Below the pieces are notes generated by a model. It saw only the letters and a list, made by a program, of their open reading frames with translations. It searched no databases and was not told where the DNA came from. Positions 22,857-58,734 of a DNA stretch of 64,000 bases are shown here, one piece after another. Each line of letters opens with the position of its first letter. Position 1 is the first letter of the stretch. Origin of the DNA: Diphasiastrum complanatum (taxonomy: Eukaryota > Streptophyta > Lycopodiopsida > Lycopodiales > Lycopodiaceae); the NCBI GenBank assembly GCA_029204225.1, contig CM055100.1:5735592-5799591 (forward strand), read 5' to 3'. A program made the translations under genes and the position numbers.

Positions 22857-23479
22857 TGTGAAGGATTTTAGATAATTCAAGATCCAATCCATGTCCCTAA
22901 TCTTAATTGGTTGTACAATAAGGAGCAAACCGACAATTCTGCCAATGTAGAAAAATCAGCATCTACATACAAAATGAGATTCAAACTCTAAGAGATACTG
23001 ATCAAACATGAACCAAAACATAAAATATGTTTGTTGTCCCTACAATTACAGTACCCTACTGTATTCATTCTACACATAGAATTGCAAGATAACATCAAGA
23101 GAGTGCACCAATGAGTAGTAGAACCCAAAGAGAACATGTATAATGATGAAATGAGAGATAGAAGAGAGAAGATGTGTCTCTCCACGAGTTACATCCTTTT
23201 ATAGAGTGTCCAAACCCTATTTGGCCACTTGGCTTTCCCTCCAAAATGTAAACCCTACTATTTTTGGGTCTAGATTCAATGTACCCAAAGTTCAAATTTG
23301 AATCTTTCTCAAACTCAACTACCAACTTTCCCACACTTTCAAAAAGTGTTTATTGAATGTATTTTAAACTAATATAACTTCAAAAAGTTTTTCTCTAAGT
23401 CTAAAATGAGTTTTGGCCTCTTATTGACAATTTACCAAAATATGACTAAACTAGACTAAATTAGTTGAAATCTCTCACA
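22857..23479 (-). mobile_element. Family X LTR, copy L1 (minus, 3' LTR)
   Basis: A 623-bp segment starting TGTGAAGGATTTTAG and ending ATCTCTCACA. The copies at 24345-24986 (plus) and 34535-35075 (minus) are clearly homologous. A minus-strand polypurine tract abuts its right end, so this is the 3' LTR of a minus-strand copy. Confidence 0.85.
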
Positions 23480-23489
23480 CTCCCTCTTC
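23480..23489 (-). other. Polypurine tract of family X
   Basis: The minus strand reads GAAGAGGGAG directly before the LTR start TGTGAGAG. The same GAAGAGGGAG-TGTG junction occurs in the complete relative at 48432-48442. Confidence 0.85.
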
Positions 23490-24344
23490 AACTAGTTTTG
23501 GCATAATTTTGACAATAGAACTTTGATCCAACTTTAGAATGATCTGCATCCTAAGTATAGATCTCCTTTCTATGGTTCTAAAGTATCTTTCATAATTGAT
23601 ATAGAGAATAGTGTTCAAATTGGATGCTTCACTATTTCTTACATCAATTTTACACATCAAGATATAACTAAAACGTGAATCCTACCAAATAGAATGTGAA
23701 TGAAATGATTTCTCCATGCTTCAAACTTTGAACTCTCTGAAAAATTACAGCAACCAAACAATAAATGTGAGTGATGACCATTTGCTTGCTTGTCTCCTCC
23801 AACTTTGTCCTTTTGTGATATGTCTCCACCATAAAACTCCATGAATGAGCCTCCATCTCCATCTTGCCACAAGAAACCATCAAACCTTGATGACTTTCCC
23901 ATGAATGAGTGACATAATGAACCTCCAATAGCTTCATTTCCATCAGCAAAACCAGCCAAGAATGCTAGTACAACTCCAACAATAAGATATTGCAAGACAA
24001 TGTAGCTAGTTTGTCCATATCTTGACAATTTGCACACATCCACATGAAATAGCTAAAACATGAGATAGAACAAGTAAAGTAAACTTTTCCTTTGACCTTA
24101 CTTGAGTCTTCAATAAGCTGCAAAAACATATCCATAACATCTTTGCCAATTACCTCTCCTTTGATGCTCTTGACTACCTCCAAATTGCCAACTTCCTTTT
24201 TGCCTTGTTGAAGCCCTTTGAGACCAACCTCTTGATCTTCCTTTTGACCATCAAAGTCATTGAACAGACTTTGTTTTCTAGATCCATTACTTGCTTTTCC
24301 AGTATGAAAACATGAGAACCAATATCCACTTGCATAGCATCATC
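23490..24344 (-). pseudogene. 3' part of family X ORF (decayed)
   Basis: Minus-strand frames read VVKSIKGE...DMFLQLIEDSSKV (about 24090-24185), a hydrophobic LQYLIVGVVLAFLAGFADG segment (about 23930-23990), and CKIDVRNSEAS...RRSIL...IILKLDQSS (about 23500-23660). All have counterparts, in the same order, in the unknown ORF of the complete element at 48446-50731 (VKSIKEETN, IVIIAGLYD, CKIDVRNSEAS...KRSILMMEIILKLEQSS). Frame changes and stops show decay. Function unknown; the position before the 3' LTR is where env-like or extra ORFs sit in some copia lineages. Confidence 0.65.
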
Positions 24345-24986
24345 TTTGAGAGATTTCAACTAGTTTAGTTTAGTTTAGTCATATTTTGGTCAATTGTCAA
24401 TAAGAGGCCAAAACTCATTTTAGAATTAGAGATAAACTTTTTGAAGTTATATTAGTTTAAAATACGTTCAATAAACACTTTTTCAAAGTGTGAGAAAGCT
24501 GGTAGTCGAGTTTGAGAGAGATTCAAATTTGAACTTTGGGTACATTGAATCTAGACCCAAAATAGTAGGGTTTACATTTTGGAGGGAAAGACAAGTGGCA
24601 AACTAGGGTTTAGACACTCTTAACTCATGGAGAGACACATCTTCTCTCTTCTCTCTCTCATTTCATCATTATATATGGTCCTCTTTGGGTTCTACTACTC
24701 ATTGGTGCACTATCTTGGTGTTATCTTGCAATCTTGTGTGTAAAATGATCATTTATTGCTATTTTTGGTTTCACATGTGTGAAATATAGTAGGGTACTGT
24801 AATTGTATGGAAAACAAACATATTTATTGTTCTGGTTCATGTTTGATCAAGTTCTCTTAGAGTTTGCATCTCATTTTGTATGTAGATGCTGTTTTTTCTA
24901 CATTGGCAGGATTGTTGGTTTGCTCCTTATTGTAACCAAAGATCAGGGATATGGATTGGATCTTGAATGATCTAAAATCCCTCACA
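24345..24986 (+). mobile_element. Family X LTR, copy L2 (plus, 5' LTR)
   Basis: The 642-bp LTR begins TTTGAGAGATTTCAAC (first G mutated relative to TGTGAGAG) and ends CCCTCACA, immediately followed by a PBS. It is in inverse orientation to L1 and L3. A local TAGTT expansion is visible near 24360-24380. Confidence 0.85.
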
Positions 24987-24998
24987 TGGTATCAGAGA
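24987..24998 (+). other. Primer-binding site of family X plus copy
   Basis: TGGTATCAGAGA directly follows the LTR. It is one mismatch from TGGTATCAGAGC. Confidence 0.9.
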
Positions 24999-25584
24999 TC
25001 TTGTGTTTCAGGTTATGAAAGGATCATCCATCTTTAGCAAGGATTTGGAGGAGTTACCAATGCTAGAGCATGCTAGATTGATCTCTACTCAAAAATCAGC
25101 ATTTTTGCATGTGTAGAATTGATCTTTTGTAGGTCAAAACTCAATATAGGATTATATGCTTGATCAATTCTCATTTCAAACTTCGATTACTGGATTTAGA
25201 TGATTTTTGGTGCATTAGAAAGGTCTCATTGGAGTCTACAAGAAGATATATCAAATTTCAAAAAATTGCATGTAGAATTTGAGATATTCAATTTTTGTGA
25301 TTTTGTCAAAACCCTAATTTTGATTGGATCTCTAGTTTGTGAGGCTAAACTTCATTTGAGTGTGTTTCAATCTTAGTAAGCGGCAAGAATCATTATATTG
25401 AGGATAGATCATAGGTTGATCAAGATTTCACTATTCTATGTGTTGATTTTCTAGTTAGAATTGCTAGAAGAGATTTGAGAGGTTCCATATCTTTGTGATT
25501 TCTTCTTGAGTTCATTTGCTGACATTCAAGAGAGTGCTTTGTGCATTGGAACAGGTTGAAAGAAGAATATCAGGTCACTTCAAC
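24999..25584 (+). other. 5' leader of family X element
   Basis: About 590 bp of untranslated leader between PBS and the gag ATG. It also exists in inverted form at about 33981-34522. Confidence 0.6.
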
Positions 25585-26640
25585 ATGGCTACAAGTGGAG
25601 GCTTTATGTTGGAGAGCAATGATAGGCTTACCTCAATCAACTATTCTACTTGGAAGGTGAGTATGGAGTCCTTACTGGAGATGAATGAGTTGATGGAGAT
25701 TGTTGCAGGTGTGGAGGAGAGACCTCAAGCACCTCAAGATCAAGTGAGGTATGACAAGAGAGCAAAGAAAGCTCTACACATGATTAAGATGAATGTTACC
25801 AATGAGCTTTTCAAGGAGATTGGTAAGTGCACATAATCTTTGGAGGCTTGGGAAGCTTTGAAGAAGCTTTATGAATCCAAGTCTACATCAAGAGTGCTTA
25901 CTCTTAGGAGGCAAATCTTTCAAAGTTTGCAAAAGAAGGAAGAGAGTACTCATGCTTTTGTTTTGAGGGTCAAGGCATTCAATGATGAGTTAGCATGTAT
26001 TGATGAAAGCATTAAGGAGGTAGAACTTGTTCAAGTTATACTTAATGGCTTGTTGAATGATCATGCTAATCTTGTCCAAAGTTTTGCTATTCAAAAGACT
26101 TTGCCAAGTATTGTGGATTTGCAAGAGATTTTGGTGAATGAGAAGTATAGGCTTCAATCAAGAGGAAGTGGATCTACATCAACATCTCATTATGAAGATG
26201 AGGTTATGTTCATCAAAGGCAAGTTCAAGGGCAAAGGCAAAGGCAAGTGGTCTAAAGGGCAAGATCAAGGTGAGACTTCCTCTTTTGGAAAAAAGAAAGA
26301 TAAGTCTAAGTTGAAATGCTTTTATTGTGGAATCAAAGGGCATTTTGCTAATGAATGTTTGAAGAAGAAAAGAGATGAAGGTATCAATGACAAAGATTCA
26401 TGGTGGATTGATAGTGGAGCTAGTTCACACATGACTAGTCACAAGGAGTTCTTTACTTCTTTGATCACTTATGATGGAGCCAAGAAAGCAATTCACATGG
26501 CCAATGGTGGTGAATGTGTGATTGAAGGTATTGGTTCAATTCCTATTTGTCTCTCTACTAATAGGAAAGAAAGACTTGAAGGTGTTCTTTACATTCCTTC
26601 ACTTTCAAAGAATTTGTTAAGTGTTTGTCAAATGGATACA
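25585..26640 (+). pseudogene. Family X gag plus aspartic protease, with a nonsense codon
   Basis: The ATG at 25585 (MATSGGFMLES) is chosen because it aligns with the Gag start of the complete relative (51516); an upstream in-frame ATG at 25516 only extends it into the leader. The N-terminal NYSTWKV motif and UBN2-type capsid region follow. A TAA at 25834-25836 interrupts after GKCT, and the frame resumes SLEAWEALKKLYESKS. The zinc knuckle CFYCGIKGHFANEC lies at about 26316-26357. Unlike the relative at 48-53 kb, a protease follows: WWIDSGASSHM at about 26401-26433. The frame is lost after LLSVCQ, near 26630. Gag would form the particle and protease process it. This copy is inactive. Confidence 0.85.
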
Positions 26641-26966
26641 TGGTAAAGTTTGGTGGTGATGCTTGTTTCATTACAAAGGAAGAAATCTTGGTTGCTAGGG
26701 GCAATAGACAAGGTAGACTTTTCAAGCTTGATGCTTTTGTTATGGCTAACAAAAAGGATGGAATGGAAAAGGAGATTGGTCTCAACTTTCCAAAGTTATC
26801 TTTTAGCATCAATAAGATTGGTGGATCTTATGCAAAGTCTAAAAAGCTTCCTTTTGCTAGATCTAGGTCAAGATCTAATATGCTTCTTGGAGATGTTCAT
26901 CTTTGTGCTAACTTGGCTAGTCTTGAGGATAATGATGGTGTTTCAATTGTTCTTCATGGCAAGTGC
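26641..26966 (+). pseudogene. Family X protease tail and start of ORF X, cut by nested copia
   Basis: In the shifted frame SNGYMVKFGGDACF and LFKLDAFVM complete the protease region. Where pre-integrase should begin, the sequence instead continues into RSRSRSNMLLGD...CANLASL...VLHGKC. This is the beginning of the unknown ORF X seen at 50731 and below. The reading is split at 26966 by insertion of the copia element and resumes at 33286. Confidence 0.8.
26962..26966 (+). repeat. Target-site duplication AGTGC (left)
   Basis: AGTGC precedes the 5' LTR, and the same five bases follow the 3' LTR at 33286-33290. This defines the insertion exactly. Confidence 0.95.
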
Positions 26967-28047: not shown

Positions 28048-28193
28048 CATGTTCATAGCTTGATTAGCTTCCACAGTACAAGACTCTACTAGTCGATAGA
28101 GTAATTGTCTTCTTGTTCTGTATTTTTCTAGTATCAGATTTTCATACTTAAGTCACTGATAGTTTCGCCTATCACTTAGGCAAATTCTTCCAC

Positions 28194-28975: not shown

Positions 28976-29059
28976 AGGACAGTCGAATCAAGTGGCAAAT
29001 GCAGCTGCATAAGCTCCACAACCAATTCAAGAAGCAGATCATGATGCCTTCATGACCAA

Positions 29060-30470: not shown

Positions 30471-30603
30471 GACAGCGAATCAGACGAAGATGTTGCTACC
30501 CAACAATAAGTCCCAGGAGTGGTTCATCAATCGAATCCTCCCAGAAGATCAAGCTGAGTGCGCACACAGCCCACAAGGTATACTCCTGAGTTTGCTTGTC
30601 TTT

Positions 30604-32115: not shown

Positions 32116-32120
32116 TCCAG

Positions 32121-32131
32121 ATAAGGGAGGG
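32121..32131 (+). other. Polypurine tract of nested copia
   Basis: ATAAGGGAGGG lies directly before the 3' LTR TGTTGGATT. Confidence 0.9.
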
Positions 32132-33181: not shown

Positions 33182-33280
<99 letters not shown>

Positions 33281-33285
33281 CAACA
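32132..33285 (+). mobile_element. 3' LTR of nested copia element
   Basis: 1154 bp. It aligns throughout with 26967-28035. The 85-bp excess is explained by a 92-bp rather than 16-bp CT tract near the end, and a 9-bp CCTCACAGA-type insertion near 32320. Scattered substitutions separate the two LTRs. Confidence 0.95.
33187..33278 (+). repeat. (TC)46 microsatellite inside the 3' LTR
   Basis: A 92-bp pure dinucleotide tract, where the sister LTR has 16 bp (28014-28029). It ends 7 bp before the LTR terminus. Confidence 0.98.
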
Positions 33286-33440
33286 AGTGCAAAAGGTAGG
33301 AAAAGAGCTAACTTCATCAATGGAGGTGAAGGTTCTTCCTTGGAAAAGATTGTTGCTAATGATTTCTTTAATCATATGGAAAAAGATGTTGCTAGGTGCA
33401 TGCATGAAGGAGATGGTTCTTCTACATTATTTTGTCGAGA
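33286..33440 (+). pseudogene. Family X ORF X, continuation after the nested insertion
   Basis: It reads GANFIN-like RANFINGGEGSSLE...VANDFFNHMEKD, matching GANFINGVDEDSSLEVIVANDLFVHMEKD region by region in the complete element (about 50390-50490). It completes the plus-strand family X copy interrupted at 26966. Homology stops near 33440, where sequence switches to minus-strand gag. Confidence 0.8.
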
Positions 33441-33980
33441 TCTCTTGCAACTCCACAATACTTGGCAAAGTCTTTTGAATAGCAAAACTTTGAACAAGAT
33501 TAGCATGATCATCCAACTAGCTATTAAGTATAACTTGAACAAGTTCTGCCTCCTTAATGCTTTCATCAATATATGCTAACTGATCATTGAATGCTTTACC
33601 CTCAAAACAAAAGCATGAGTACTTTCATCCTTTTGCAAACTTTGAAAGATTTTCCTCCTAAGAGTAAGCACTCTTGATGTAGACTTGGATTCATAAAGCT
33701 TCTTCAAAGCTTCCCAAGCCTCCAAAGATTATGTGCACTTACCAATCTCCTTGAAAAGCTCATTGGTAACATTCATCTTAATCATGTGTAGAGCTTTCTT
33801 TGCTCTCTTGTCATACCTCACTTGATCTTGAGGTGCTTGAGGTCTCTCCTCCACACCTGCAACAATCTCCATCAACTCATTCATCTCCAGTAAGGACTCC
33901 ATACTCACCTTCCAAGTAGAATAGTTGATTGAGGTAAGCCTATCATTGCTCTCCAACATAAAGCCTCCACTTGTAGCCAT
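33441..33980 (-). pseudogene. Family X gag, inverted copy
   Basis: The minus strand from 33980 reads MATSGGFMLESNDRLTS and continues to KTLPSIV near 33460. Over the first 107 codons the deduced peptide is identical to the plus copy (25516-25836), including the same TAA after GKCT. Downstream it is broken by substitutions. The zinc knuckle is not reached: the sequence ends at the inversion junction near 33440. Confidence 0.85.
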
Positions 33981-34522
33981 GTTGAAGTGACCTGATATTC
34001 TTCTTTCAACCTGTTCCAATGCACAAAGCACTCTCTTGAATGTCAGCAAATGAACTCAAGAAGAAATCACAAAGATATGGAACCTCTCAAATCTCTTCTA
34101 GCACTTCTAACTAGAAAATCAACACATAGAATAGTGAAATCTTGATCAACCTATGATCTATCCTCAATCTAATGATTCTTACCACTTCCTAAGATTGAAA
34201 CACACTCAAATGAAGTTCAGTAATCTCACAAACTAGAGATCCAATCAAAATTAGGGTTTTGACAAAATCACAAAAAATTGAATATCTCAAATTCTACATG
34301 CAATTTCTAAAAACTTGATATATCTTCTTGTAGACTCCAATGAGACCTTCCTAATGCATTAAAAATCATCTAAATACAGTAAACCAACCTACAAAAGATC
34401 AATTCTACACATGCAAAAATGCTGATTTTTGAGTAGAAATCAATCTAGCATGCTCTAGCACTGGTAACTCCTCCAAATCCTTGCTAAAGATGGCTGATCC
34501 TTTCATAATCTGAAACACAAGA
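33981..34522 (-). other. Family X leader, inverted copy
   Basis: Homologous to 24999-25584 in reverse orientation. No coding role. Confidence 0.6.
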
Positions 34523-34534
34523 GCTCTGATAACA
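34523..34534 (-). other. Primer-binding site of inverted family X copy
   Basis: The minus strand reads TGTTATCAGAGC, one mismatch from the consensus, adjacent to the LTR. Confidence 0.8.
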
Positions 34535-35075
34535 TGTGAAGGATTTCAGATCATTCAAGATCCAATCCATGTCCCTGATCTTTGATTACAATAAGGAGCA
34601 AACCAACAATCCTGCCAATGTAGAAAAATCAGCATCTACATACAAAATGAGATGCAAACTCTAAGAGATACTGATCAAACATGAACCAAAACATAAAATA
34701 TATTTGTTGTCTGTACAATTACAGTACCCTACTGTATTTCACACGTGTGGAACCAAAAATAGCATTAAATGATCATTCTACACGTAGAATTGCAAGATAA
34801 CATCAAGAGAGTGCACCAATGAGTAGTAGAACCCAAAGAGAACCATGTATAATGATGAAATGAGAGATGGAAGAGAGAAGATGTGTCTCTCCACGAGTTA
34901 CATCTTTTTATTGAGTGTCCAAGCCCTATTTGGCCACTTGGCTTTCCCTCCAAAATGTAAACCCTACTATTTTTGGGTCTAGATTCAATGTACCCAAAGT
35001 TCAAATTTGAATCTCTCTCAAACTCGACTACCAACTTTCCCACACTTTCAAAAAGTGTTTATTGAATGTAATTTA
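34535..35075 (-). mobile_element. Family X LTR, copy L3 (minus, truncated)
   Basis: Starts TGTGAAGGATTTCAG and is homologous to L2 and L1 up to about 35075, where it stops within the TTTATTGAATGTAATTTAA region. The outer ~110 bp present in L2 are missing. Confidence 0.8.
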
Positions 35076-35754
35076 AGGCTTAATATTGAGTGGGCTTTTC
35101 TTGTTCACCTAGTTCATTTTTTCTCAAAACAAGATCCAAAATCCCCACAATCATGCTCATTGATATGCATAGATTTGAACATATTTGTAAACATATTCTT
35201 TTCCTAATCTCTGGATGTTATTTTTATGACTTTTAGATATAAGTATGGTTCCATTCACCACCCCATCGAAATGTTTTCAATCATTTACGTGTTACCTCTC
35301 CGTCCCTCCCAAATGTTGCTAAAGTTCAAAGATAAACTCCGACCCATATCATTGATTAATGCGCTCTTAGAGAATGATAGATGGTGCATATGAGAGTGGA
35401 TGCAATGTTCAAGCTTGCATTGGATGATTCGGAACATGTCATGTCTAGAATGATGCAAATGTGGAGGTGCTATTTCTATTGAACCATGGAATTTTACTCT
35501 TGACTACAAGTTGCTCCCAAGTCTTCATCAAGCATCTTAGCTCTACTTTAAGGCTCTATTCTTGCTAGCTCTTTGATGATGATATCATGGCCTTGGTTGT
35601 CCTAGATGATCACTTTGTCACTCATTTTGTTGAAATTGTATACACGTTTCTATCTACTAATTTTTTGTGGTGAATAAGACTAAATAGGATTTCTTGAGGA
35701 GTTTCACACAAGAATTCCCCTAATTGGCTGGTGAATCTACAATTTCCTCATTAT
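35076..35754. other. No gene recognised
   Basis: Unassigned AT-rich sequence beyond the truncated LTR. Confidence 0.4.
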
Positions 35755-47416: not shown

Positions 47417-47590
<174 letters not shown>

Positions 47591-47780: not shown

Positions 47781-47785
47781 ATAAA
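47781..47785 (+). repeat. Target-site duplication ATAAA (left)
   Basis: ATAAA precedes the LTR at 47786 and recurs at 53335-53339 after the second LTR. Confidence 0.9.
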
Positions 47786-48432
47786 TGTGAAAAATACATA
47801 TCCTAAGTGGATCTAAACTCCAAGATCATTGGCTTGAATGCTTGCACTCCAAACTACATAAGCTAGGAATTGGCAACACATTCTATGCTACCTAGAATGC
47901 AAAGAACTTGATCAAAAAGCATTTATCACAAATGGAAACTTCCATAAACATCAAGTGCGGCCCAAAATAGCATTATACAATCCATAATACATCAGCCTAT
48001 CACTTTTGGAAAGCACCTAAGATCATACACACAAAGCTTGAACTCAATCACTACACAATGCCAACAATGGAAGGAGAACCCAATAGAAAAATCTCTCATT
48101 AAGCAAATGAATACAATGGATCTGCTCCAACCTGTTTCTCCACGGCCTACCTGCTATATATAGCTGAGAGAGATGACTCTCTCTCCTCTCTCTAGACCCT
48201 CCTTACCTAAAATATGCCCTATATAGGTAAAATTGGCATATATGTCCAAAATACATGAAAATGGACTCATTTCGAAGGTCTTGAAGTTTGACACTTCTTC
48301 ATACTGAAAAAATACACTTACTAAAAATATCTAGACCTGTTTCACACGTGTGAAAAGTCAGATCCTAAACTATGTGCCATTTTTAGCAATTTTGGCCTAA
48401 AACTAGACAAGGAAATGTTGACAATTTTCACA
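47786..48432 (-). mobile_element. 3' LTR of the family X non-autonomous element
   Basis: 647 bp, TGTGAAAAATACATATCC...ATTTTCACA. It is identical by eye to 52688-53334 except for two bases in the first 16. A palindromic CTATATATAG TATA-like box lies near 48152-48161. A CACACGTGTG palindrome lies near 48344. Confidence 0.95.
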
Positions 48433-48442
48433 CTCCCTCTTC
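48433..48442 (-). other. Polypurine tract of family X non-autonomous element
   Basis: The minus strand reads GAAGAGGGAG immediately before the LTR TGTG, and three bases after the TAA stop plus GTT of the final ORF. Confidence 0.9.
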
Positions 48443-48445
48443 AAC

Positions 48446-49048
48446 TTAACTTGCTAGTTTTACAACACTACTTTGTTCCAACTTAAGAATGATCTCCATC
48501 ATCAGAATAGATCTCTTCTCAAGGATCCTAATATGTACAAAATAGGACACAACATAATTGATATAGATAATAGTGTCCATATAGGATGCTTCACTATTTC
48601 TTACATCAATTTTACATAGAATCATAAAAATGGTACATGTAAAAGAACATAGAATCTCAATTAATGAATTCCTCCATGTATCCATCTCTGGTTTCTCTGT
48701 AAAATAGCAGCAAACAAGTTGTAAATGAAAGTGATCAATAAGTGTTTGCATGCCTCCTCCACATTTCACTATACATATAGTGAATGCAACATGTATCTCC
48801 ATGAATGAACTTCCATCACCACCTTGCCTTTGTAGATCTTCAATCCATGAAAGCCTTTGAGTGAATGAATGCCAAAAAGATGTGTTCCCTACTCCATTTG
48901 AATGACCAAAACCTGAACTTGAAATACTTGAAGTACCTCCACAAGATTTGCACACAACGCTTGATCCTACAATGTCAACAAGTTGCCAATTTGCCAACAC
49001 TAGAATACTAGATCTTGAACTTTGTTCAAAAGAAAACATATTGACCAC
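48446..49048 (-). CDS. Family X ORF X, C-terminal 200 codons
   Basis: It is in the same frame as the 560-codon ORF and separated from it by one TAA, so it may be the C-terminus of one 762-codon frame reached by readthrough, or a second product starting at the ATG three codons in (VNMFSFEQSS). No domain recognised. Features: a Cys/Gly/Ser-rich stretch (VCKSCGGTSSISSSGFG), a hydrophobic SFTCTIFMILC segment, and a basic/hydrophobic end (KRSILMMEIILKLEQSS). The end segment is conserved in the decayed copy at 23500-23660 (RRSIL...IILKLDQSS). Such conservation in another copy argues that this is a genuine element-encoded frame. It ends 3 bp before the polypurine tract. Confidence 0.6.
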   Translation of the reverse strand: MVNMFSFEQSSRSSILVLANWQLVDIVGSSVVCKSCGGTSSISSSGFGHSNGVGNTSFWHSFTQRLSWIEDLQRQGGDGSSFMEIHVAFTICIVKCGGGMQTLIDHFHLQLVCCYFTEKPEMDTWRNSLIEILCSFTCTIFMILCKIDVRNSEASYMDTIIYINYVVSYFVHIRILEKRSILMMEIILKLEQSSVVKLAS

Positions 49049-50731
49049 TTAAATACCTTTCAAGATCTGAATGAATTCATGTACTTGATCATACAAACCA
49101 GCAATGATAACTATTCCATCTCCAAGATCCAAAGGATGCAAAACTATGGAACTAGTTTTATTGAAATTTGACAATTTCAACACATTGACATAACAATGTT
49201 CATACATGAGATTAGGCAAGTGAGGTAGAGTAAGAAGACACTTCCTTGCAGCTCCAAAGACCTTACTTGAACCTTCAAGAACCTGTAAAAACAGATCCAA
49301 AATGCCTTGACCATTTGTCTCTTCTTTGATGCTTTTCACTAGCTTCGAATTGCCACTTGTCTCTTGGTGTTGATGAAGCAATCCAAGATCAACCTCTTGA
49401 TCTTCCAATAAGACATCAAAGATCTTGCATATGTGAACATCTTCAGATCTGAAACTCTGAAGATACTCCCTCTCAAACACATGATTAAGATCCCACAAGA
49501 TCTCATCAATGCTCAAATTTGACCCTTCACTATAGTTAGTGAAAACAATGCCACCATCATAAACCAAAAGATAGATTCCAACATTTCCATTTAACATGAA
49601 GTAGAGTAGGTGAAGATGAGTATCAAACCTAATCAAAACAGCCCTCTTGAGTTCATAACAAACCTCAATAAGCTCACCAATGATATCTCCCTTGCCTTGA
49701 AGAAGTTGCCACTTGAGTTGCTCCATGTAGTCTTCTTCAACCAACCTTTTGCCATCTTGACCATGAATGAACAATCCACCACAATCATAGAATGCTTTGA
49801 GTTGATGAAGAGATGTTAGATCCATGCTTTGGATCTTCCCAAGAACCACTCTTCCATTGCCCTTTCCTTCACAAGACTCCCTCTTAATGCTAGCACCACA
49901 AAAGTTAGAAACCTCCCTCTTGATAGTTGCACCATAAGAAGTAGAAGACTCTTGAATATTAGAAGCCAAGAAAAGAATCCTTAGTACCTTCAACATAAGA
50001 GTGATTGAAGTACTCTCTCTTTTCAAACATGAACTTCTACTCAATGATTTAGGTAATGAGTCATATGATAATGATTCTTCCTCACTATCGTTCATAAAAA
50101 CATCATTCAAAGTACATCCTACTTTGAACACTTCACATACTTCTCTTCCTTTTGACTTGTGATCTCCCTCACCAAGTCTCATGATAGAAACCTTTGATCT
50201 ACTCTTTTTATGAAGAAATGTGACACCACTTGTTGCACAAATGACTTTATCACAAAAAGATGTAAAAGAACCATTTCCTTCAAGCATGCTCAAAGCACCA
50301 TCATCTTTTCCCACATGATTACATACATCAATATGAAAAGAATTAGAAGAACAACCATCTTCTTGCAAAGAATGACACTTAGCATCTCCATCTTTTTCCA
50401 TATGAACAAACAAGTCATTAGCAACAATCACTTCCAAAGAAGAATCTTCATCAACTCCATTGATGAAGTTAGCTCCTTCCTTACCTTTTCCATTTTTGCA
50501 CTTGCCATCTAGCACCATTGAAGAACCAACAAGCCTTGGAAGTCCATGAGTAGAAGAGTACAAACATGATGCTAATTTAGCTCCACATGACTCCATATGA
50601 CTAGTAGGTAACACTAGTGCATCTTCAAGATCCAATGGATCCAAAAAATTGACCATAGATTCACCAAAGCTTGCCAAGTTAGCACAACAATTATCATCTC
50701 CAAGAAGTACATTAGATCTCAACCTAGGCAT
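49049..50731 (-). CDS. Family X ORF X, 560-codon protein of unknown function
   Basis: The ATG at 50731 overlaps the gag stop by 13 nt in the -1 frame (GAATGCCTAGGTTGA), so translation could follow gag by reinitiation or frameshifting. The ~63-kDa product has no protease DSG, integrase D-D-E, YVDD or RNase H motif. Visible are an N-terminal Ser/Asp-rich part, a KCKNGKGKEG basic patch (about residues 91-100), a Lys/Ser-rich central part (SHKKSRSK-like HKKSRSKVS), and a more hydrophobic C-terminal half (LLYFMLNGNVGIYLLVYDGG; LGDGIVIIAGLYDQ). Homologous segments occur in the plus copy at 26840-26966 and 33286-33440 and in the minus relic at 23490-24344, so ORF X is a family trait. I do not recognise a cellular or viral homologue. 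Confidence 0.7.
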   Translation of the reverse strand: MPRLRSNVLLGDDNCCANLASFGESMVNFLDPLDLEDALVLPTSHMESCGAKLASCLYSSTHGLPRLVGSSMVLDGKCKNGKGKEGANFINGVDEDSSLEVIVANDLFVHMEKDGDAKCHSLQEDGCSSNSFHIDVCNHVGKDDGALSMLEGNGSFTSFCDKVICATSGVTFLHKKSRSKVSIMRLGEGDHKSKGREVCEVFKVGCTLNDVFMNDSEEESLSYDSLPKSLSRSSCLKRESTSITLMLKVLRILFLASNIQESSTSYGATIKREVSNFCGASIKRESCEGKGNGRVVLGKIQSMDLTSLHQLKAFYDCGGLFIHGQDGKRLVEEDYMEQLKWQLLQGKGDIIGELIEVCYELKRAVLIRFDTHLHLLYFMLNGNVGIYLLVYDGGIVFTNYSEGSNLSIDEILWDLNHVFEREYLQSFRSEDVHICKIFDVLLEDQEVDLGLLHQHQETSGNSKLVKSIKEETNGQGILDLFLQVLEGSSKVFGAARKCLLTLPHLPNLMYEHCYVNVLKLSNFNKTSSIVLHPLDLGDGIVIIAGLYDQVHEFIQILKGI

Positions 50732-51516
50732 TCATTTGCAAAATGTCCTTTTATCCCACAATAAAAGCACTTGAACTTTGACTTATTGTTCTTAGTAGAA
50801 GAGGAAGAGGAAGAGTGATCATCATGATCAAAGTTACCACCTTTGGACCATTTCCCTTTGCCTTTACCTTTGCCCTTGAATTTGCCTTTTGTGAAGAAAG
50901 CCTCTTCACCTCCACCTTGCAAGGATGCACCATCAAGCTTTGATTGCAACCTATGTTCTTCAGCCAATAAGATTTCTTGCAAGTCAACCACACTTGGCAA
51001 GACTCTTTGAATGGCAAAACTTTGCACAAGGTTAGCATGTTCATTTAGCAAACCATTCAACATAACTTGGACTATTTCACCATCTTTTATGTTCTCATCA
51101 ATGCATGCTAAATCATCACTTAGGGACTTAACTCTCAAGATAAATGCATGAGCACTTTCACCCTCTCTTTGCCTACTAGAAAATATTTGTCTCCTTAGGG
51201 TCAATACCCTAGATGTGGACTTTGATTCAAAGAGCTTCTTTAAGGCATTCCATGCCTCACTTGCACTTTGACACTTTCCAACTTCCTTGAGAAGTTCATT
51301 TGTAACATTCATTTTAATGATATGAAGAGCCCTTTTGGCCTTCTTATCAAACCTTTGTTGCTCTTGAAGTGTGAGAGGTCTCTCTTCAATTTCTGCAACT
51401 ATGTCCATGAGTTCATTCAACTCAAGTAAGGACTCCATCCTCACTTTCCAAGTAGAGTAGTTTGATGAACTCAACCTTTCACTAGACTCTAGCATGATCC
51501 CACCATTGGAAGCCAT
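50719..51516 (-). CDS. Family X Gag, intact (265 aa)
   Basis: A complete Gag: ATG at 51516 (MASNGGIMLESSERLS), the NYSTWKVRMESLLE motif of copia Gag N-termini (about residues 20-33), a UBN2-type capsid region (ALHIIKMNVTNELLKEVGK; SEAWNALKKLFESKS; LTLRRQIFSS), a Gly/Lys-rich basic stretch (KGKFKGKGKGKGKWSKGG), a Ser/Asp-rich spacer, and a single zinc knuckle CFYCGIKGHFANEC just before the stop. It is shorter than a Gag-Pol because the stop directly follows the knuckle. No premature stops, unlike every other gag in the window. It should assemble particles and package RNA; the missing enzymes would have to come in trans. The 53.8-kb copia Gag is similar and may represent the helper lineage. Confidence 0.92.
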   Translation of the reverse strand: MASNGGIMLESSERLSSSNYSTWKVRMESLLELNELMDIVAEIEERPLTLQEQQRFDKKAKRALHIIKMNVTNELLKEVGKCQSASEAWNALKKLFESKSTSRVLTLRRQIFSSRQREGESAHAFILRVKSLSDDLACIDENIKDGEIVQVMLNGLLNEHANLVQSFAIQRVLPSVVDLQEILLAEEHRLQSKLDGASLQGGGEEAFFTKGKFKGKGKGKGKWSKGGNFDHDDHSSSSSSTKNNKSKFKCFYCGIKGHFANECLG

Positions 51517-52675
51517 GATTCTAATGTTTCTTCAACTTTTAGGTTTTGTCCTAAAGCACTTAGCACTCACTTTTCTCTCAACAAATGATAGATAAAGAGA
51601 TCTATGAAGATTTAGGACCCTAAAACACTTCTATCTTGAACCTAGATGGTTTCCAAGCATAGAAAGGAAGATTGAAACACATGCAACACTTTGCACACAC
51701 TAAGAATGGATTACAAAATCAAACCAACCTGAACACACTCTTGCTTAAGCTCTCAAACTTTCCAGCAAGTGACCAAATCAAGTTATGGTGTGAAGAGTTA
51801 CTTGCATTCTTAGAAAATACCCAAAACTAGGATGCCAAGATTACCTAGTAATGAACAAACTTGATCAACATATGATCAACACACTAAGATATTGATTCAA
51901 CCTGTAAAACCACATGTAAACCACACTTCTAAAAGTTTATAAACTCCAGCAAGTGATAAATACAAGATTTAGAGGTGAATGAATGAGCACACTTAGTGAA
52001 TCACAAGACTAGCTTCACTATCTTGTCAAATCTTGGTGTTTAGATGTAGATCTAAGATCACTTCACATGAGAATGTTCCTCAACCTGTTAAGAACCTGAA
52101 AACACACTTGCATAATGGTTAACACCTTCCAGCAAATGCTCCAATCAAATTACATAAGGAGAGTTACTTACATGCTCAACAAAGTACACCAAAAATTATG
52201 CCAAAATTGATGACAATCTTTACAATATGCTCTTCACAATGGAGCTTGCAATATGTTCACCCAAAAAGGGGATCTTTCATCCAAATGGGAGCTTTGCTCA
52301 GCCTTTAGGAGAATTACAACTCACTCAAAAGAGCATTTGTCATCCACTTAAGGAGAAGTTTCATCCACTTAAGGAGAGTGTTCATCCAAGAATGGAGATT
52401 GTCAACAATAGGATTGAAAAGAACATTGTTAGTATTGAATATGCACAAGCCTCACAATCACAAATGATTAGGTGTTATGATCTGATCCAAAATAGTTTCT
52501 TTTCAGCCTCTGATCTTCAATAGACCTGAAATATGCTTTTGATCCACAAGTTCAACTCACAAAACAAAGGTTAGTAAGATTTGATCAACAAAGCAATGCA
52601 AAATCATGCTAGAACTTGATCAAACATCCAAATATCACCAAAAATGGAATACTTACTGTAAATAGAAGCCAACCA
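51517..52675 (-). other. Long leader of the non-autonomous element
   Basis: About 1.16 kb between PBS and gag without a conserved ORF. It contains repeated CAGCAA(G/A)TG / CCAGCAAGTGA strings and a direct CATCCACTTAAGGAGA(A/G) repeat near 52330-52375. It probably carries packaging and dimerisation signals, by position only. Confidence 0.6.
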
Positions 52676-52687
52676 GCTCTGATACCA
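52676..52687 (-). other. Perfect tRNA-iMet primer-binding site
   Basis: The minus strand reads TGGTATCAGAGC, directly abutting the LTR. Confidence 0.97.
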
Positions 52688-53334
52688 TGTGAAAAATATA
52701 GATCCTAAGTGGATCTAAACTCCAAGATCATTGGCTTGAATGCTTGCACTCCAAACTACATAAGCTAGGAATTGGCAACACATTCTATGCTACCTAGAAT
52801 GCAAAGAACTTGATCAAAAAGCATTTATCACAAATGGAAACTTCCATAAACATCAAGTGCGGCCCAAAATAGCATTATACAATCCATAATACATCAGCCT
52901 ATCACTTTTGGAAAGCACCTAAGATCATACACACAAAGCTTGAACTCAATCACTACACAATGCCAACAATGGAAGGAGAACCCAATAGAAAAATCTCTCA
53001 TTAAGCAAATGAATACAATGGATCTGCTCCAACCTGTTTCTCCACGGCCTACCTGCTATATATAGCTGAGAGAGATGACTCTCTCTCCTCTCTCTAGACC
53101 CTCCTTACCTAAAATATGCCCTATATAGGTAAAATTGGCATATATGTCCAAAATACATGAAAATGGACTCATTTCGAAGGTCTTGAAGTTTGACACTTCT
53201 TCATACTGAAAAAATACACTTACTAAAAATATCTAGACCTGTTTCACACGTGTGAAAAGTCAGATCCTAAACTATGTGCCATTTTTAGCAATTTTGGCCT
53301 AAAACTAGACAAGGAAATGTTGACAATTTTCACA
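52688..53334 (-). mobile_element. 5' LTR of the family X non-autonomous element
   Basis: 647 bp, TGTGAAAAATATAGATCC...ATTTTCACA. Same length as, and almost identical to, 47786-48432. The TATA-like CTATATATAG near 53054 would drive minus-strand transcription into gag. Confidence 0.95.
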
Positions 53335-53339
53335 ATAAA
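53335..53339 (+). repeat. Target-site duplication ATAAA (right)
   Basis: Matches 47781-47785. Confidence 0.9.
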
Positions 53340-53829: not shown

Positions 53830-54622
53830 ATGGCACCTGTAGGAGGATATCTCTTAGAACCAAGTGAAAGACTAAGTACCTCCAATTATTCAATATGGAA
53901 GATTAGGATGGAGTCTGTTCTTATACTCCAGGATGTTATGGACATAGTACTTGGTATTGAGAAGGAGCCTCAAGCACAACTGGAAATACCAAAGTATAGG
54001 AAGAGAGCTAGGATGGCTCTACACTTCATTAAAATGAATGTCTCTAATGAGATTCTAAGAGAAATAGGAACTTACACCACTGCTAAAGAAGCTTGGGATG
54101 CACTTAAGTCTATCTATGAAGCTAAGAACCCTCACTCTTAGAAATCAGGTTTTTCAAAGTTTTCAAAGAAGTGAGGAGAGTGCATCAAATTAAGTTCTAA
54201 GAGTAAAAGATCTTCATTGTGTTGGTGTCACAATCAATCAAGATGAGCTAGTACAAGTCATGCTTAATGGCTTAAAAGAAGACTATGATAATCTTGTTCA
54301 ATCCTTTGCTATAAAGGAAGAGTTGCCCAATTTGGAAACTCTTCAAGGAATTCTCATCTCTGAAGAATGAAGACACAGTTACAAACTTTCAAGGATGAAC
54401 AAACTCGAGCATATTGGAAGTGACAAAGCTCTCTTTGTCAAGGACAAGCATAAAGGGAGGAGCAAGAACCAGTTTTCTCAAGCTTTCAACAAAGACAAAG
54501 CCAAAGACAAAGACAAAGATGGAGAAGAGGATGACTCAACTCATCCTTCTACTTCCAAGACCAAGAAGAAGAAAGTCAAGTGTTTCTTTTGTGGCAAGAA
54601 GGGGCACTATGCCTCTAATTGA
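53830..54622 (+). pseudogene. Copia gag, decayed (relative of family X Gag)
   Basis: The ATG at 53830 (MAPVGGYLLEPSERLS) is chosen by alignment with family X Gag. Then SNYSIWKIRMESVL, ALHFIKMNVSNEIL, EAWDALKSIYEAKN, and after a frame break VMLNGLKEDYDNLVQSFAIK. The zinc knuckle reads CFFCGKKGHYASN followed by TGA exactly where the last Cys should be. At least four stops or shifts. The similarity to the intact Gag at 50719-51516 runs the full length, placing both in one lineage. Confidence 0.85.
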
Positions 54623-55372
54623 TTCAAAAAGGAAAATCAACTCAAACAAGCAAATCTCTCTAATGATAAAGAAGAAGGCTTTATAGCGAGTGATGGAGAA
54701 GGATCCCTCATGGTGTCAATCTTTTCTTCAACATCCTTCAAGAAGGATGGAGCATGGTACATCGATAGTGGTGCCTTATCACATATGTGTTGTTGAAAGG
54801 AGTCTTTTGACTCTATTGTACCTTATAAAGGACTTAAAAGATCTATTTATACAACAAATGATCACAAATGCTCTATTGAAGGAATTGGCAATATTCCATT
54901 AAAACTTGCTTCTTCTAAAGTTCTATTACTTCCAATGTTCTTTTTGCTCCTAAGCTTACAAAGAACTTGATAAGTGTTGGAAAGTTGTTTGATTGTGGTT
55001 GTGATGTGAAATTCAATGACAATACTTGCTTAATTAAGAAAGGTGATGAGATGCTAGCTAATGGATCTAGATATGGTGGCATCTTCAAGTTAAATTCTTA
55101 TGAGAATGCAAACTTTTGTGAAATTGCCTTTATGTCTAAGGAGGACTTATGACATAGGAGGTTGGGGCATCCTAACTATAAATCTATGCTTTCTATGATC
55201 AAGAATGATAAGGCTATTGGCCTACCAAGATCACTTTCCAAAGATATCAAGCCATGTGAGACTTGTGCTATTGCAAAATTACATAGAAAGCCATGTCAAG
55301 TCTTCTATTAAGACTTCTCATCCTTTGGAAATAATTCACTCGAACGTTCATTTTTCTTCCTCAAAAAGTATT
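54623..55372 (+). pseudogene. Copia protease, pre-integrase and start of integrase
   Basis: Protease active site WYIDSGALSHM (about 54754-54786). APKLTKNLISV end motif (frameshifted, about 54940-54975), HRRLGHPN (about 55153) with CETCAIAK (about 55258) for the pre-integrase zinc site, then IIHSNVHFSS (about 55335), in which the first integrase Asp reads Asn. The solo LTR at 55378 interrupts the integrase core. Confidence 0.8.
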
Positions 55373-55377
55373 GGCGG

Positions 55378-56160
55378 TGACAAGATTTTCAGAATTCACA
55401 CGTGTGGGGAATGTCCACAAGTATGATTGATCTTGATTAAGCTTTGTGATTAGCAAAGTAACCTGATTCTAGATTGTTTAGCAAGATCTAGTTTAGAAGA
55501 AATGGCTTGACCACAATCTAGCATGCTGAGCATCAGATTATGATAGCAATGAATCAAAGAATGAACAAAAGTACAAGATTTTAGTGTATTAGCATTGCTT
55601 CAACACAATTTAGAGAGAGAAAGCTAGAGAGATAACAAGCAAAATAGTCTAGATCCAAATTGGCATGAGGTAGCTACAAAACTTTGGTTCTTCATCAATG
55701 ATTGTGAGGAGAGCTACACATATTTATGGAGTTTGAGGTAGAACCACATCTATCCATTCCAAAATGACAACTAAAGTGACATCTAGAGTCTATGTGACAT
55801 TTGTCACTTGCCATGCATGAAATTCTACCAATTTTTTACAAGTGTACTAGTTCTAACTAATAAAGTACAAATCATCATGCATGTGTCCATTATACTTTGT
55901 GCATGCCTTGCATGTCACTAGGATCACTTACAATTAATGCATGTGAATTGCCACGAGTTTCTACAAGCATGACTTTGCCAATTCTACGTCTACAAACTAT
56001 ATGCAAGTTGTATTCTTCAAACTAGACATTACATAACCATGTAGCTCTAGTTCTACATAGGCCAAACTTGGCATTTTGCATTTATGAGCTACATACTTGC
56101 ATGGTACAACATTTGTAGCAAGCCAAGAAATCAATATGATTTGTTTTTCCAATTTTAACA
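55378..56160. mobile_element. Solo LTR (783 bp) with TSD GGCGG inside copia integrase
   Basis: The insert begins TGACAAGATTTTCAG and ends CAATTTTAACA, with GGCGG directly before (55373-55377) and after (56161-56165). No PBS, PPT or coding sequence is inside, and the interrupted integrase frame resumes exactly after it (GGATCFVTFID). This is the signature of LTR-LTR recombination leaving one LTR. Its source element is not in the window. It contains an ACACGTGTGGGG string near 55399. Confidence 0.9.
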
Positions 56161-57025
56161 GGCGGTGCTACTTGTTTTGTTACCTTCATTGATGATTTTA
56201 CAAGGTATACTAGGTTGTACCTTCTTTCTTCAAAATCTATGGTGTTTGAACACTTCCTAGTTTTCAATTAAAGCTTATGCTGAGAAACAATTTTCTTTCA
56301 AAAGTAAAGCTTTGAGATGTGATGGAGGAGGTGAATACATCTCCAATAAGTTCTATAATTATTGTGAGGTTGAAGGGATTAAAAGAGAGTTTTCTTGTGC
56401 TTATTCCCCATCTCAAAATGGGGTTGCCGAAAGAAAAAAATGATCTCTATGTGAATGTGCTAAAGCAATCCGAGTTGAAGCTTCTTTGCCTATTGAATAT
56501 CTGAAGGCTTTATTCAAGAAGAAACCTAAGGTTGATCACCTTAGAGTTTTTGGATGTGCTTGCTTTGTTCATATATCCTTGGAAACAAGGAAAAGAAATG
56601 ATCCAAATTCAGTCAAAGGGATCATGGTTGGATACTCATCCAACAAGAAGGCGTACCTCAATTACAATTGAGAGTAGAGATGTTATTTTTCATGAGAATA
56701 AAAAATACATCTTTGATGAGGCCGAGATCAAAGATTCTCAAAAGGATTCTCCTATCATCACCCTTGAAGATTATCATGGAGAGATGGGGCCGAGAATTGA
56801 GGAGGAGTCACCTCGAGTTTTCTCACCAAGGAGATCACAAAGAGAAAGATCCGAGCCTAAGAGGCTCACATATGGAGATAAAGGCAAACAAGTGGAACTC
56901 AACTCCACTAATTATGCATATTTTGTTTCACATGAAGAGCCAAAGGATGTACATGAAGCAATCAACTCAAGAGAATGGTTTCTAGCCATGAAGGAGGAGT
57001 ATGATGCATTGATTGCCAACAAGAC
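56161..57025 (+). pseudogene. Copia integrase (rest) and linker
   Basis: GGATCFVTFIDDFTRYTRL then LRCDGGGEYISN (second Asp kept) and SQNGVAERKK (Glu kept), then LFKKKPKVDHLRVFGCACF and GIMVGYSS. A frameshift near 56650 leads to a linker with SPRRSQRERSEPKRL, a common copia integrase-RT spacer, and ends with WFLAMKEEYDALIANKT before a stop. Broken by several stops. Confidence 0.8.
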
Positions 57026-57690
57026 ATGAGAGCTTGTGGATCTTCCATCCAACAAGCATACTATTGGTTGCAAATGGGTTTTTCGAGTCAAATATAATCA
57101 AGATGGCACAATCAACAAGTACAAGACAAGACTTTGTGCAAAGGGCTTTGCCCAAGTTTATGGACTTGATTATGAGGAGACTTTTGCTCCTGTTGCAAAG
57201 ATGGTATCAATAAGAGTCATCATTTCTATTGCTTGTTTTTTCAAATGAAAAGTTTTTCAACTAGATGTCTCAAATGCTTTCTTAAATGGATATCTAGAAG
57301 AAGAGATTTATATGGAACAAACTCCTGGGTTTATCCAAGACAAGGCCAAAGTCTGCTTGCTCTTCAAAAGTCTCTATGGACTAAAGCAAGCACCAAGATC
57401 GTGGTATTCACGACTTAACACTTTCCTTATCTCACTAGGATTCAGTCTTAGTAACTACGATCCTTCCTTGTATGTCAAGTTCTATGATAGTGATATTGTC
57501 ATTCTTCTAATTTATGTTGATGATATTATACTAACAGGAAGTTGTATCAATTTAGTTGAAGAAACCAAAATTGCACTTGGAAGAGAATTCAAGATGTAAG
57601 ATCTTGGAAAAATTCATTACATCTTAGGATTAGAGATTGACTTCCATAGAGAGAAAGCTTTTGTTTGTGAATCTAAGTATGCTCTTTCAA
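57026..57690 (+). pseudogene. Copia reverse transcriptase
   Basis: GCKWVFRVKYNQDGTI, YEETFAPVAKM, FQLDVSNAFLNGYLEEEIYM, SLYGLKQAPRSWY and the active site YVDDIILTG (about 57513-57540) are all present and canonical apart from DVSNAF for DVK(T/N)AF. Stops at 57027-57029 (TGA), about 57246-57248 and 57597-57599 interrupt it. Confidence 0.85.
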
Positions 57691-58046
57691 TGTTGAAAAA
57701 GTTTAATATGCTAGATTGTAAGAGTATTGATACTCCTATGGAGCAGATTGTAAAAGACCCTAATAAAGGTGACGAAAGATCCTTCAAGGACATCACTCTT
57801 TTTAGGAGTCTTATAGGCTCCTTAATTTGGCTTACCGTAACTAGGCCTGATGTAAGTTTTAGTTTTCATAAGTTGAGCCAAGCTATGCAAAGTCCTACTA
57901 TTCATCATTGGAAAATGGCCAAAAGGTACTTAGGTACATATCTTCAACCTATGGTTATGGTTTGTTATACAAAAGTGAAGATCTTTCTATTGTTGGCTAT
58001 TCTGACTTGGATTTTGCTAGTGATAAAGTGGATCAGAAATCTACAA
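57690..58046 (+). pseudogene. Copia RT end and start of RNase H, truncated
   Basis: SLIGSLIWLTVTRPDVSFS (about 57810-57860), then after a one-base shift GYSDLDFASDKVDQKST (about 57993-58040), the first RNase H motif. Homology stops there, so the rest of RNase H, the PPT and the 3' LTR are missing. Confidence 0.8.
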
Positions 58047-58734
58047 ATGCATCGGTATACGACGCATTCCTAAACGTTTGGGATCTAGCAAATGAATAAG
58101 CTAATCATCAAAAAACTCAAGTTCTCCCACAGTAAGAATGTCATCCTCACCGGTGGATATTTCAGTAAGAAAAACATCCTCAGGTATCCACTCAATAGGG
58201 AGTGTATCTGATAGATCCAGATCGAAGTTGAGCATCCATTATCAATAGGATCGAGATCATGTTGTAGATGTACTAATTGACAAGTGGGTACATCTCCATT
58301 GCATTACCATTATACTGCAAATCATAGAAGTTTGAAGTAGGCAGACCCTGTCGGTTGATAGCTGGCTGGAATCTGTCAATTAGAGAATAAGCGCTAGTAG
58401 AAAGAGGAACTAACTAGAGAGAGAATTACAGCACATTGGCACCGATACTCTTGATCATCTTCTTGCATCTGAAGATATCATTTTACCAGTTTATCTTTCA
58501 ATTCTAGCAATTTCTGCTTGCCTGCATGCATTTTTACATTCACTGCTTTTCTATCCGCACGCATTGCCTCTGAAACCATCATTAGATCCATACCCAATCA
58601 CACACAGTTATGACAACCCACCGCCCCACTGCTTTCCATAGCTCTTGCAATTTTTATGACAACCCATTGCTTTCCATCGCTCTTGCAATTTTTTAGGGGA
58701 GGAAGAACTGTTGCTTGAACTGTTGCTTTAAAAA
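58047..58734. other. No gene recognised; possible start of the next LTR
   Basis: No coding evidence. It lies between the truncated copia element and the CCGACG array that precedes the next copia PBS. Confidence 0.35.

What the first reader, a model, noticed from the sequence alone, without database searches (positions are those of the whole stretch)
47786..53334. Young, intact non-autonomous LTR retrotransposon with gag plus a large unknown ORF in place of pol
Seen directly: TSD ATAAA, two 647-bp LTRs that differ by eye at two bases, perfect PBS, PPT, an uninterrupted 265-aa Gag, then 560 + 200 codons with no protease, integrase, RT or RNase H motif. Known: TR-GAG-type elements keep only gag and move with enzymes supplied in trans. 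Unusual here is that pol is replaced by a long ORF kept open in the youngest copy. Inference: the family has recently been mobile and ORF X may be useful to it.
Basis: partly seen in the sequence, partly recalled or inferred. Interest (0 to 1): 0.88.

Follow-up and report, generated by a model that had tools for sequence, protein, structure and literature searches.

The report
Pol-less Copia element carrying unknown module
A recently inserted jumping gene keeps its own capsid gene but, in place of its copying enzymes, has a long unknown protein segment that related families in the same genome share, so it probably has to borrow enzymes from a relative.

Summary
The element is real: 647-bp LTRs with two differences, TSD ATAAA, PBS, PPT and a Copia-type gag, without pol. 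In 19 of 20 fetched sister copies gag, "ORF X" and the "200 codons" form ONE frame (Gag-X, 1023-1030 aa) that ends just before the 3' LTR; the window copy has a 22-nt gap and a premature stop.

X is a shared module: Gag-X here, Gag-protease-X in El2, and in El4 it replaces RT within elements 97-98% identical to an autonomous one (L049; RVT_2 E=3.5e-77). A block at the X end has 6,945 genome sites, an L049 RT block 2,136. X synonymous divergence is 5-7 times lower than gag's, so X probably moved between lineages.

X stays open while its amino acids drift: omega 0.77-1.6 against 0.07-0.16 for gag; nonsense changes 0 versus 10.9 and 7.3 expected. I infer helper-dependent elements in which an uninterrupted frame to the 3' end, perhaps sparing the RNA from decay, matters more than the protein. 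No known domain matched X. Nearest described analogue: wheat RLG_Quinta (GAG plus DUF1). New variant of a known kind.

The parts
47781..47785 (.). target-site duplication ATAAA, left
53335..53339 (.). target-site duplication ATAAA, right
52688..53334 (-). 5' LTR, 647 bp, TGTGA...TCACA
47786..48432 (-). 3' LTR, 647 bp, 2 substitutions from the 5' LTR
52676..52687 (-). primer binding site TGGTATCAGAGC (initiator-Met tRNA type; identity of the tRNA recalled)
50719..51516 (-). gag, 265 aa in this copy (Retrotran_gag_2; weaker DUF4219 and CCHC zinc knuckle matches)
50726..50728 (-). joint where this copy lacks 22 nt present in sister copies L017 and L020; X is out of frame with gag here
   Evidence: lengths of the other hits
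49049..49051 (-). premature stop of this copy, absent from L017 and L020
48584..48616 (-). 33-nt block near the X end, identical in El1 and the El2 relative; 6,945 genome sites with up to 3 mismatches
48433..48445 (-). polypurine tract GTTGAAGAGGGAG
24345..26361 (+). decayed El2-type relative: LTR (about 24345-24986), PBS, leader, gag with a stop (25585-26361)
26362..26966 (+). El2 relative: protease (DSGAS) and pre-integrase region running up to the start of X; frame broken in this copy
33286..33433 (+). El2 relative: continuation of X after a nested Copia insertion (about 26967-33285)
22857..24346 (-). El2-type 3' half: 3' LTR (22857-23477) and X end, inverted relative to the 5' part
33439..35076 (-). 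second El2-type 5' part (LTR, leader, gag fragment with the same gag stop)

Best explanation
The window element (El1) is a young but defective copy of a Ty1/Copia-type non-autonomous family whose unbroken form encodes one Gag-X polyprotein of about 1030 aa. Shown: El1 has Gag and a 764-767-aa module X and no pol; X also follows Gag-protease in the El2 family and stands in place of RT in El4, whose copies are otherwise 97-98% identical to an autonomous element; copies with X in frame with what precedes it exist in El1, El2 and El4; gag of these families has diverged far more than their X. Inferred: X spreads between families by template switching between co-packaged RNAs and displaces pol; these elements supply Gag (El2 also protease, El4 also protease and integrase) and borrow RT and the rest from autonomous relatives such as L049, which shares the PBS, the TGTGA/TCACA LTR ends and a PPT with one different base. 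Inferred, less certain: X is kept because a frame that stays open to within about 13 nt of the 3' LTR gives the full-length RNA a short 3' UTR and spares it from nonsense-mediated decay, so that the open frame is selected and the amino-acid sequence hardly is.
For: Single Gag-X frame of 1023-1030 aa in 19 of 20 fetched copies; stop codon 13 nt before the LTR in L017. El2: L044 has 860 codons open from the gag end through PR and preINT to the X end; in L029 PR (Pol_BBD E=2.9e-25) runs in frame into X. El4: L050 has 1255 codons open, Gag-PR-INT-X-RH end; L047, L048 and L050 match L049 at 96.9-97.9% up to the same left junction (L049 nt 4324); L049 has RVT_2 at E=3.5e-77. X dS 0.24 vs gag dS 1.66 (El1/El2) and 0.10 vs 0.54 (El4/El2). 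Frame guarded: 0 nonsense vs 10.9 expected (El1/El2, 419 trimmed codons, lowest of 300 simulations 3); 0 shared nonsense vs 7.3 expected, P=6e-4 (El1/El1b, 194 shared changes). Amino acids nearly free: omega 0.78 (bootstrap 0.55-1.05), 0.77 (0.54-1.17), 1.59 (0.73-5.5); gag 0.07 and 0.16; aa identity 0.644 vs 0.642 simulated under neutrality. El1 and L049 LTRs align better than shuffled (score 247.5 vs at most 132.5 in 20 shuffles), with shared termini and PBS. Copy numbers.
Against: omega is below 1 in the two largest comparisons (2 delta lnL 3.08 and 1.80, neither significant) and replacements are slightly milder than neutral (mean BLOSUM -0.32 vs -0.52, 6.7% of simulations as high), so a weakly constrained protein is possible; X aa 560-770 gave omega 0.34 (2 delta lnL 4.99, one of five regions). 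L017 and L030 were compared because their X is open; the five other El2 copies have 0-2 stops and 0-4 frame-breaking indels in X. L038 and L042 have 1 and 4 private stops and 2 and 3 private frame-breaking indels, which I take as decay after insertion. The two nonsense tests share the L017 branch. In El2 the window copy and L030 have a frame break between protease and X. In L048, L035 and L039 the X frame ends before an out-of-frame RNase H, so it does not reach the PPT. El1/El2 LTRs are weakly alike in a forced global alignment (0.69 over 575 positions), so 'no BLAST match' is not 'unrelated'. No expression, decay or transposition data. Within-family X variants (pN/pS 1.06) are mostly singletons.
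Confidence: 0.55

Rival explanations
1. X is a functional but fast-evolving or loosely constrained protein tail of Gag (for example a disordered spacer, an assembly tail, or a factor that interferes with the helper's RT), and the frame is open because the protein is needed.
For: Open, in-frame X in copies of El1, El2 and El4; strong codon periodicity; omega slightly below 1 in two comparisons and 0.34 in the C-terminal region; one hydrophobic stretch near the C-terminus.
Against: Amino-acid identity equals the neutral expectation and replacements are nearly as radical as neutral ones; omega about 1 or above in several regions; no Pfam match above cut-off in X, none in NCBIfam, no PDB match assignable to X; both single-sequence AlphaFold models are of low confidence, which says little either way.
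Confidence: 0.3
2. X carries cis-acting RNA signals (packaging, dimerisation, plus-strand priming) for the shared helper; the protein frame is secondary.
For: A 33-nt block identical in El1 and El2 with 6,945 genome sites; similar rates at all three codon positions; in the loci read the X end lies near the PPT or is followed by RNase H sequence.
Against: It does not explain the missing nonsense changes and the in-frame joints; the exact block is absent from L049, so its enzymes do not need it in their own RNA.
Confidence: 0.15
3. X is only hitch-hiking filler, open because it was acquired recently from coding sequence, with no selection at all.
For: omega near 1 in most comparisons; many individual copies carry private stops.
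Against: At the observed divergence 10.9 and 7.3 nonsense changes were expected and none found; no stop or frame-breaking indel is shared by L038 and L042.
Confidence: 0.08

Closest known systems
RLG_Quinta with its partner RLG_Cereba (wheat centromeres; PMC11302176, passages read)
   Same: Non-autonomous LTR element whose ORF encodes GAG plus a domain of unknown function (DUF1), partner with the same PBS and LTR ends, gag lineages far more divergent than the flanks, explained there by template switching.
   Different: Quinta is a Gypsy family found there in Triticeae and oat; here the gag is Copia-type, X occurs in several architectures (after Gag, after protease, in place of RT), and X was tested for frame and amino-acid constraint. 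I could not compare DUF1 with X.
TR-GAG elements (PMC8704663 and PMC9784723, passages read; the founding 2015 paper is not held)
   Same: Two LTRs and an ORF with gag, no pol, moved in trans; one Arabidopsis TR-GAG was seen to transpose in ddm1.
   Different: TR-GAGs are described there as having a single ORF for GAG; here about three quarters of the polyprotein is X.
RLG_Sabrina and RLG_WHAM semi-autonomous elements (PMC9744471, passages read)
   Same: GAG-protease without RT and INT, and Sabrina variants with unique unknown coding segments, linked to an autonomous partner.
   Different: Gypsy families; in the Sabrina variants the unknown segments replace GAG-Pro, here X follows Gag or Gag-Pro and replaces RT in El4.
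Autonomous-type Copia element L049 in the same genome
   Same: 97-98% identical to El4 outside the replaced part; same PBS, PPT with one different base, TGTGAAA...TTTCACA ends as in El1; related gag.
   Different: Has RT and RH and no match to X; this copy has some interruptions of its own frame.

Membership tests
Ty1/Copia LTR retrotransposons | Copia-type gag | tested here: met
   PF14223 E=8e-24 for the window gag
Ty1/Copia LTR retrotransposons | protease-integrase-RT-RH order (INT before RT) | tested here: inconclusive
   Seen in the related L049 (Pol_BBD, gag_pre-integrs, rve, then RVT_2); cannot be seen in El1 itself, which has no pol
LTR retrotransposon insertion | LTR pair, TSD, PBS, PPT | tested here: met
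TR-GAG | two LTRs, gag, no pol | tested here: met
TR-GAG | ORF encodes GAG only | tested here: not met
   Gag-X frame of 1023-1030 aa in 19 of 20 copies, Gag about 263 aa of it
RLG_Quinta | GAG plus unknown domain in one ORF, RT and INT absent | tested here: met
RLG_Quinta | Gypsy superfamily (derived from Cereba) | tested here: not met
   Copia-type gag
RLG_Quinta | homology of X to DUF1 | not tested
   the DUF1 sequence was not at hand
Non-autonomous partner of L049 | same PBS, LTR ends and PPT | tested here: met
   TGGTATCAGAGC; TGTGA/TCACA; PPT GTTGAAGAGGG shared, one base differs after it
Non-autonomous partner of L049 | mobilisation by its enzymes | not testable with these tools
   needs a transposition assay

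The most novel reading that the evidence does not exclude
X is a 'translation runway': a recombining module that repeatedly turns autonomous Copia elements into helper-dependent ones and is selected for being an uninterrupted frame up to the 3' LTR, probably so that the Gag messenger/genome escapes nonsense-mediated decay, while the encoded amino-acid sequence is nearly free to drift.
Probability: 0.3. Interest if true: 0.85.

Novelty: new variant of a known kind. Interest (0 to 1): 0.66.

Why it matters
Non-autonomous LTR elements with long unknown frames beside gag have been described, and it is not known whether such frames encode needed proteins. Here one genome holds the same module in at least three architectures beside a nearly identical autonomous-type relative, so the conversion of an autonomous element into a helper-dependent one, the transfer of the module and the split between a guarded frame and a free sequence can be tested directly. 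If the runway idea holds, RNA surveillance would shape what non-autonomous retrotransposons look like.

Tried and rejected
Rejected: decayed pol (no pol match in X; in El4 X stands where L049 has RT). One-copy captured fragment (6,945 block sites). Chance ORF. Two separate ORFs (true only of the broken window copy). My first comparison, of window sequences alone, gave X omega 1.00 over 117 codons (0.54-2.3) and no excess at third positions, which looked like plain non-coding sequence; the sister copies changed that to 'frame open, sequence nearly free'.

Led nowhere: AlphaFold of the first part of X (mean pLDDT 32.8) and of a 149-aa piece (42.8); no fold search was made on such models. PDB sequence search (only two weak hits, to Arc and PNMA2, on the gag side). 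NCBIfam. IMG/VR (close relatives only). Codon counts from a nucleotide-level El1/El2 alignment, which broke into many small gaps and were not used (last three rows). dN/dS among El2 copies: X 1.07, gag 0.90, neutral for both and thus uninformative on constraint. An El1-specific copy count and a count of a mid-X block were asked for and never answered.

Rows dropped: codons next to gaps or in windows under 40% identity in the trimmed El1/El2 set (419 kept; the untrimmed comparison had 612); codons next to gaps in the El4/El2 set (254 kept); codons where L038 and L042 differ in the El1b set (619 kept); L027 left out because it has no single long frame. Of 40 listed hits 20 were fetched; of 40 six; of the sites listed twelve; of 40 four.
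Full report
WHAT IS IN THE WINDOW. The element lies on the minus strand at 47786-53334. The LTRs are 647 bp and differ at two positions, 634 and 636; the TSD is ATAAA; the PBS TGGTATCAGAGC abuts the 5' LTR and GTTGAAGAGGGAG the 3' LTR. The gag frame (265 aa) matches Pfam Retrotran_gag_2 at E=8e-24 and a CCHC knuckle. Then follow 560 and 200 open codons. The longest sense ORF in 500 Markov copies per model was 217 codons. Period-3 composition gives p=6.5e-15 for the 560 codons and 0.0046 for the 200; LTR (0.47) and leader (0.12) show none. No Pfam match in X reached a curated cut-off; NCBIfam gave none and PDB two weak hits on the gag side.

THE WINDOW COPY IS BROKEN; MOST SISTER COPIES ARE NOT. 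The genome is held (1.74 Gb; window = C9:5735592-5799591). A 2-kb query gave 40 scored matches of 3,027 candidates, at 98-100% identity; the other 39 span 2006-2023 bases where the window has 2001. I fetched 20 of the 40 regions. In L017 it ends 13 nt before the 3' LTR. Against L017 the window copy has 11 substitutions, a 1-nt gap and a 22-nt gap at the gag/X joint; one substitution lies in the stop at 49049-49051. LTR pairs of the 20 copies differ by 0-5 substitutions, mean 0.0029 per site; at 1.3e-8 per site per year (recalled) that is about 0.1 million years. These copies were chosen by similarity to the window and are therefore biased to young ones.

RELATIVES. The window holds decayed relatives (El2 type): gag, then protease (DSGAS) and pre-integrase, then X, interrupted by a nested Copia element. 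Six El2-type copies were fetched (L029-L034). L029 shows Gag-PR-preINT running in frame into X, with one stop in gag, and L044 has 860 codons open from the gag end through PR and preINT to the X end; the window relative and L030 have a frame break between PR and X. A 33-nt block near the X end, identical in El1 and the window's El2 relative, has 3,470 + 3,475 genome sites with up to 3 mismatches and none for the reversed control. From the listed sites, all on contig C1, I took 12: one El1 (L043, 856 codons open), two of a sister family El1b (L038, L042; X 86-87%, LTR start 81%), five El2-type (L036, L040, L041, L044, L045; LTR start 79-97%), three with X joined to integrase or RNase H sequence (L035, L037, L039) and one fragment with the RNase H end (L046).

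X IN PLACE OF RT. A query with the L039 integrase gave 40 matches at 98-100%. Of four fetched regions (L047 and L048 were chosen because they also carry the X block) L047, L048 and L050 carry X and L049 shows no match to it. L049 has gag_pre-integrs, rve, SH3_retrovirus and RVT_2 (E=3.5e-77). L047, L048 and L050 match L049 at 96.9-97.9% from the LTR to L049 nt 4324, just inside RT; there X begins in all three. The match resumes at 5204 in L047 and L048 (RNase H kept) or at 5580 in L050 (RNase H end only). L050 has 1255 codons open from gag to the PPT; in L047 gag to X is open for 986 codons; in L048 the frame is interrupted before X and again before RNase H. RNase H was recognised by recalled motifs and by a BLASTP match of an L039 piece to the window's other decayed Copia element (42% over 45 aa, E=8e-13). 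A block of the L049 RT has 2,136 sites against 6,945 for the X block; the two patterns differ in length and conservation, so the ratio of about 3:1 is rough. L049, El1 and El2 share the PBS and TGTGA/TCACA ends; the PPT differs by one base in L049; the El1 LTR aligns with that of L049 at 0.71 (score 247.5, at most 132.5 in 20 shuffles).

DIFFERENT DEPTHS OF GAG AND X. El1/El2: gag dS 1.66, omega 0.07; X dS 0.24 over 419 trimmed codons. El4/El2: gag dS 0.54, omega 0.16; X dS 0.10 over 254 codons. LTR and leader of El1 and El2 gave no BLAST match at E 1e-3, though a forced global alignment of the LTRs gives 0.69. The simplest reading is that X has passed between lineages by template switching, as the wheat paper proposes for exchange between its gag lineages (PMC11302176, passages read).

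FRAME GUARDED, SEQUENCE NEARLY FREE. omega of X is 0.77 over 612 codons (2 delta lnL 3.08), 0.78 trimmed (bootstrap 0.55-1.05), 0.77 for El1/El1b over 619 codons shared by L038 and L042 (0.54-1.17) and 1.59 for El4/El2 (0.73-5.5). Among 19 El1 copies X has 8 synonymous and 32 non-synonymous variants (ratio 1.06) and gag 2 and 0, mostly singletons. With the observed substitutions a neutral X should have met 10.9 nonsense changes (El1/El2; lowest of 300 runs 3) and 7.3 among 194 changes shared by both El1b copies (P=6e-4); none is present. Against this: L017 and L030 were taken because they are open; L038 and L042 have 1 and 4 private stops, and the other El2 copies 0-2 stops and 0-4 frame-breaking indels each, which I read as decay after insertion; the two counts share the L017 branch. 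The 17 gaps of the El1/El2 protein alignment are whole codons, which such an alignment imposes, but both frames are open throughout. Aa identity is 0.644 against 0.642 simulated; mean BLOSUM62 of replacements is -0.32 against -0.52 (6.7% of simulations as high) and +0.47 for gag. One region of five (X aa 560-770) had omega 0.34.

MECHANISM. Shown: anatomy, families, the autonomous-type relative, in-frame joints in some copies of each family, the different depths. Inferred: mobilisation in trans, and the reason for the frame. Retroviral gag messengers have a long 3' UTR that exposes them to decay (starts of the abstracts of PMC2925335 and PMC5580461, listing), and a Nicotiana assay has been used on RNA surveillance of transcripts with long 3' UTRs (start of the abstract of PMC6277124, same listing). 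A pol-less element with 2.3 kb of stop-ridden sequence after gag would be exposed; an open X to the LTR would not. L048, L035 and L039, where X ends before an out-of-frame RNase H, are against a strict version. The rival, a loosely constrained protein tail, is close behind.

KNOWN KINDS. RLG_Quinta (GAG plus DUF1, partner RLG_Cereba), RLG_Sabrina/WHAM and TR-GAG are the nearest (passages read). As far as titles and abstract starts show, none of my seven answered paper searches listed a Copia family with an unknown module replacing RT, or a test of frame against sequence constraint in such a module; only the listed top papers were seen, and the library lacks most subscription papers. The host was not identified; that it is a plant is an inference.

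Noticed in passing
window 22857-35076: Composite of El2-type pieces: an inverted 3' half, a forward 5' half and a further inverted 5' half, both gag copies sharing one stop; could be a template-switch or fold-back product, later hit by a nested insertion.
   Followed up: partly
window about 26967-33285: Nested Copia element (LTRs 93% alike, PBS at 28036, decayed coding) inside the El2 relative, with AGTGC on both sides as apparent TSD.
   Followed up: partly
window 53830-58050: Decayed Copia element with gag (44-54% aa identity to El1 gag in two pieces), protease, integrase and RT, ending after the RNase H start.
   Followed up: partly
G000 C1:25525877-25535176 (part in L041): Four X-block sites exactly 3,089 bp apart: apparent tandem array of short El2 units sharing LTRs.
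   Followed up: partly
L035, L039, L048, L050: The El4 X carries a piece homologous to El1 X nt 64-217 in a different place and without a match in the El2 X used: X itself is a mosaic.
   Followed up: partly
L009-L028 gag: Only 2 variants in 263 gag codons against 40 in 767 X codons among 19 young copies; fewer than expected if most arose after insertion.
   Followed up: no
window, ending near 47587: Long GA simple repeat just left of the element.
   Followed up: no
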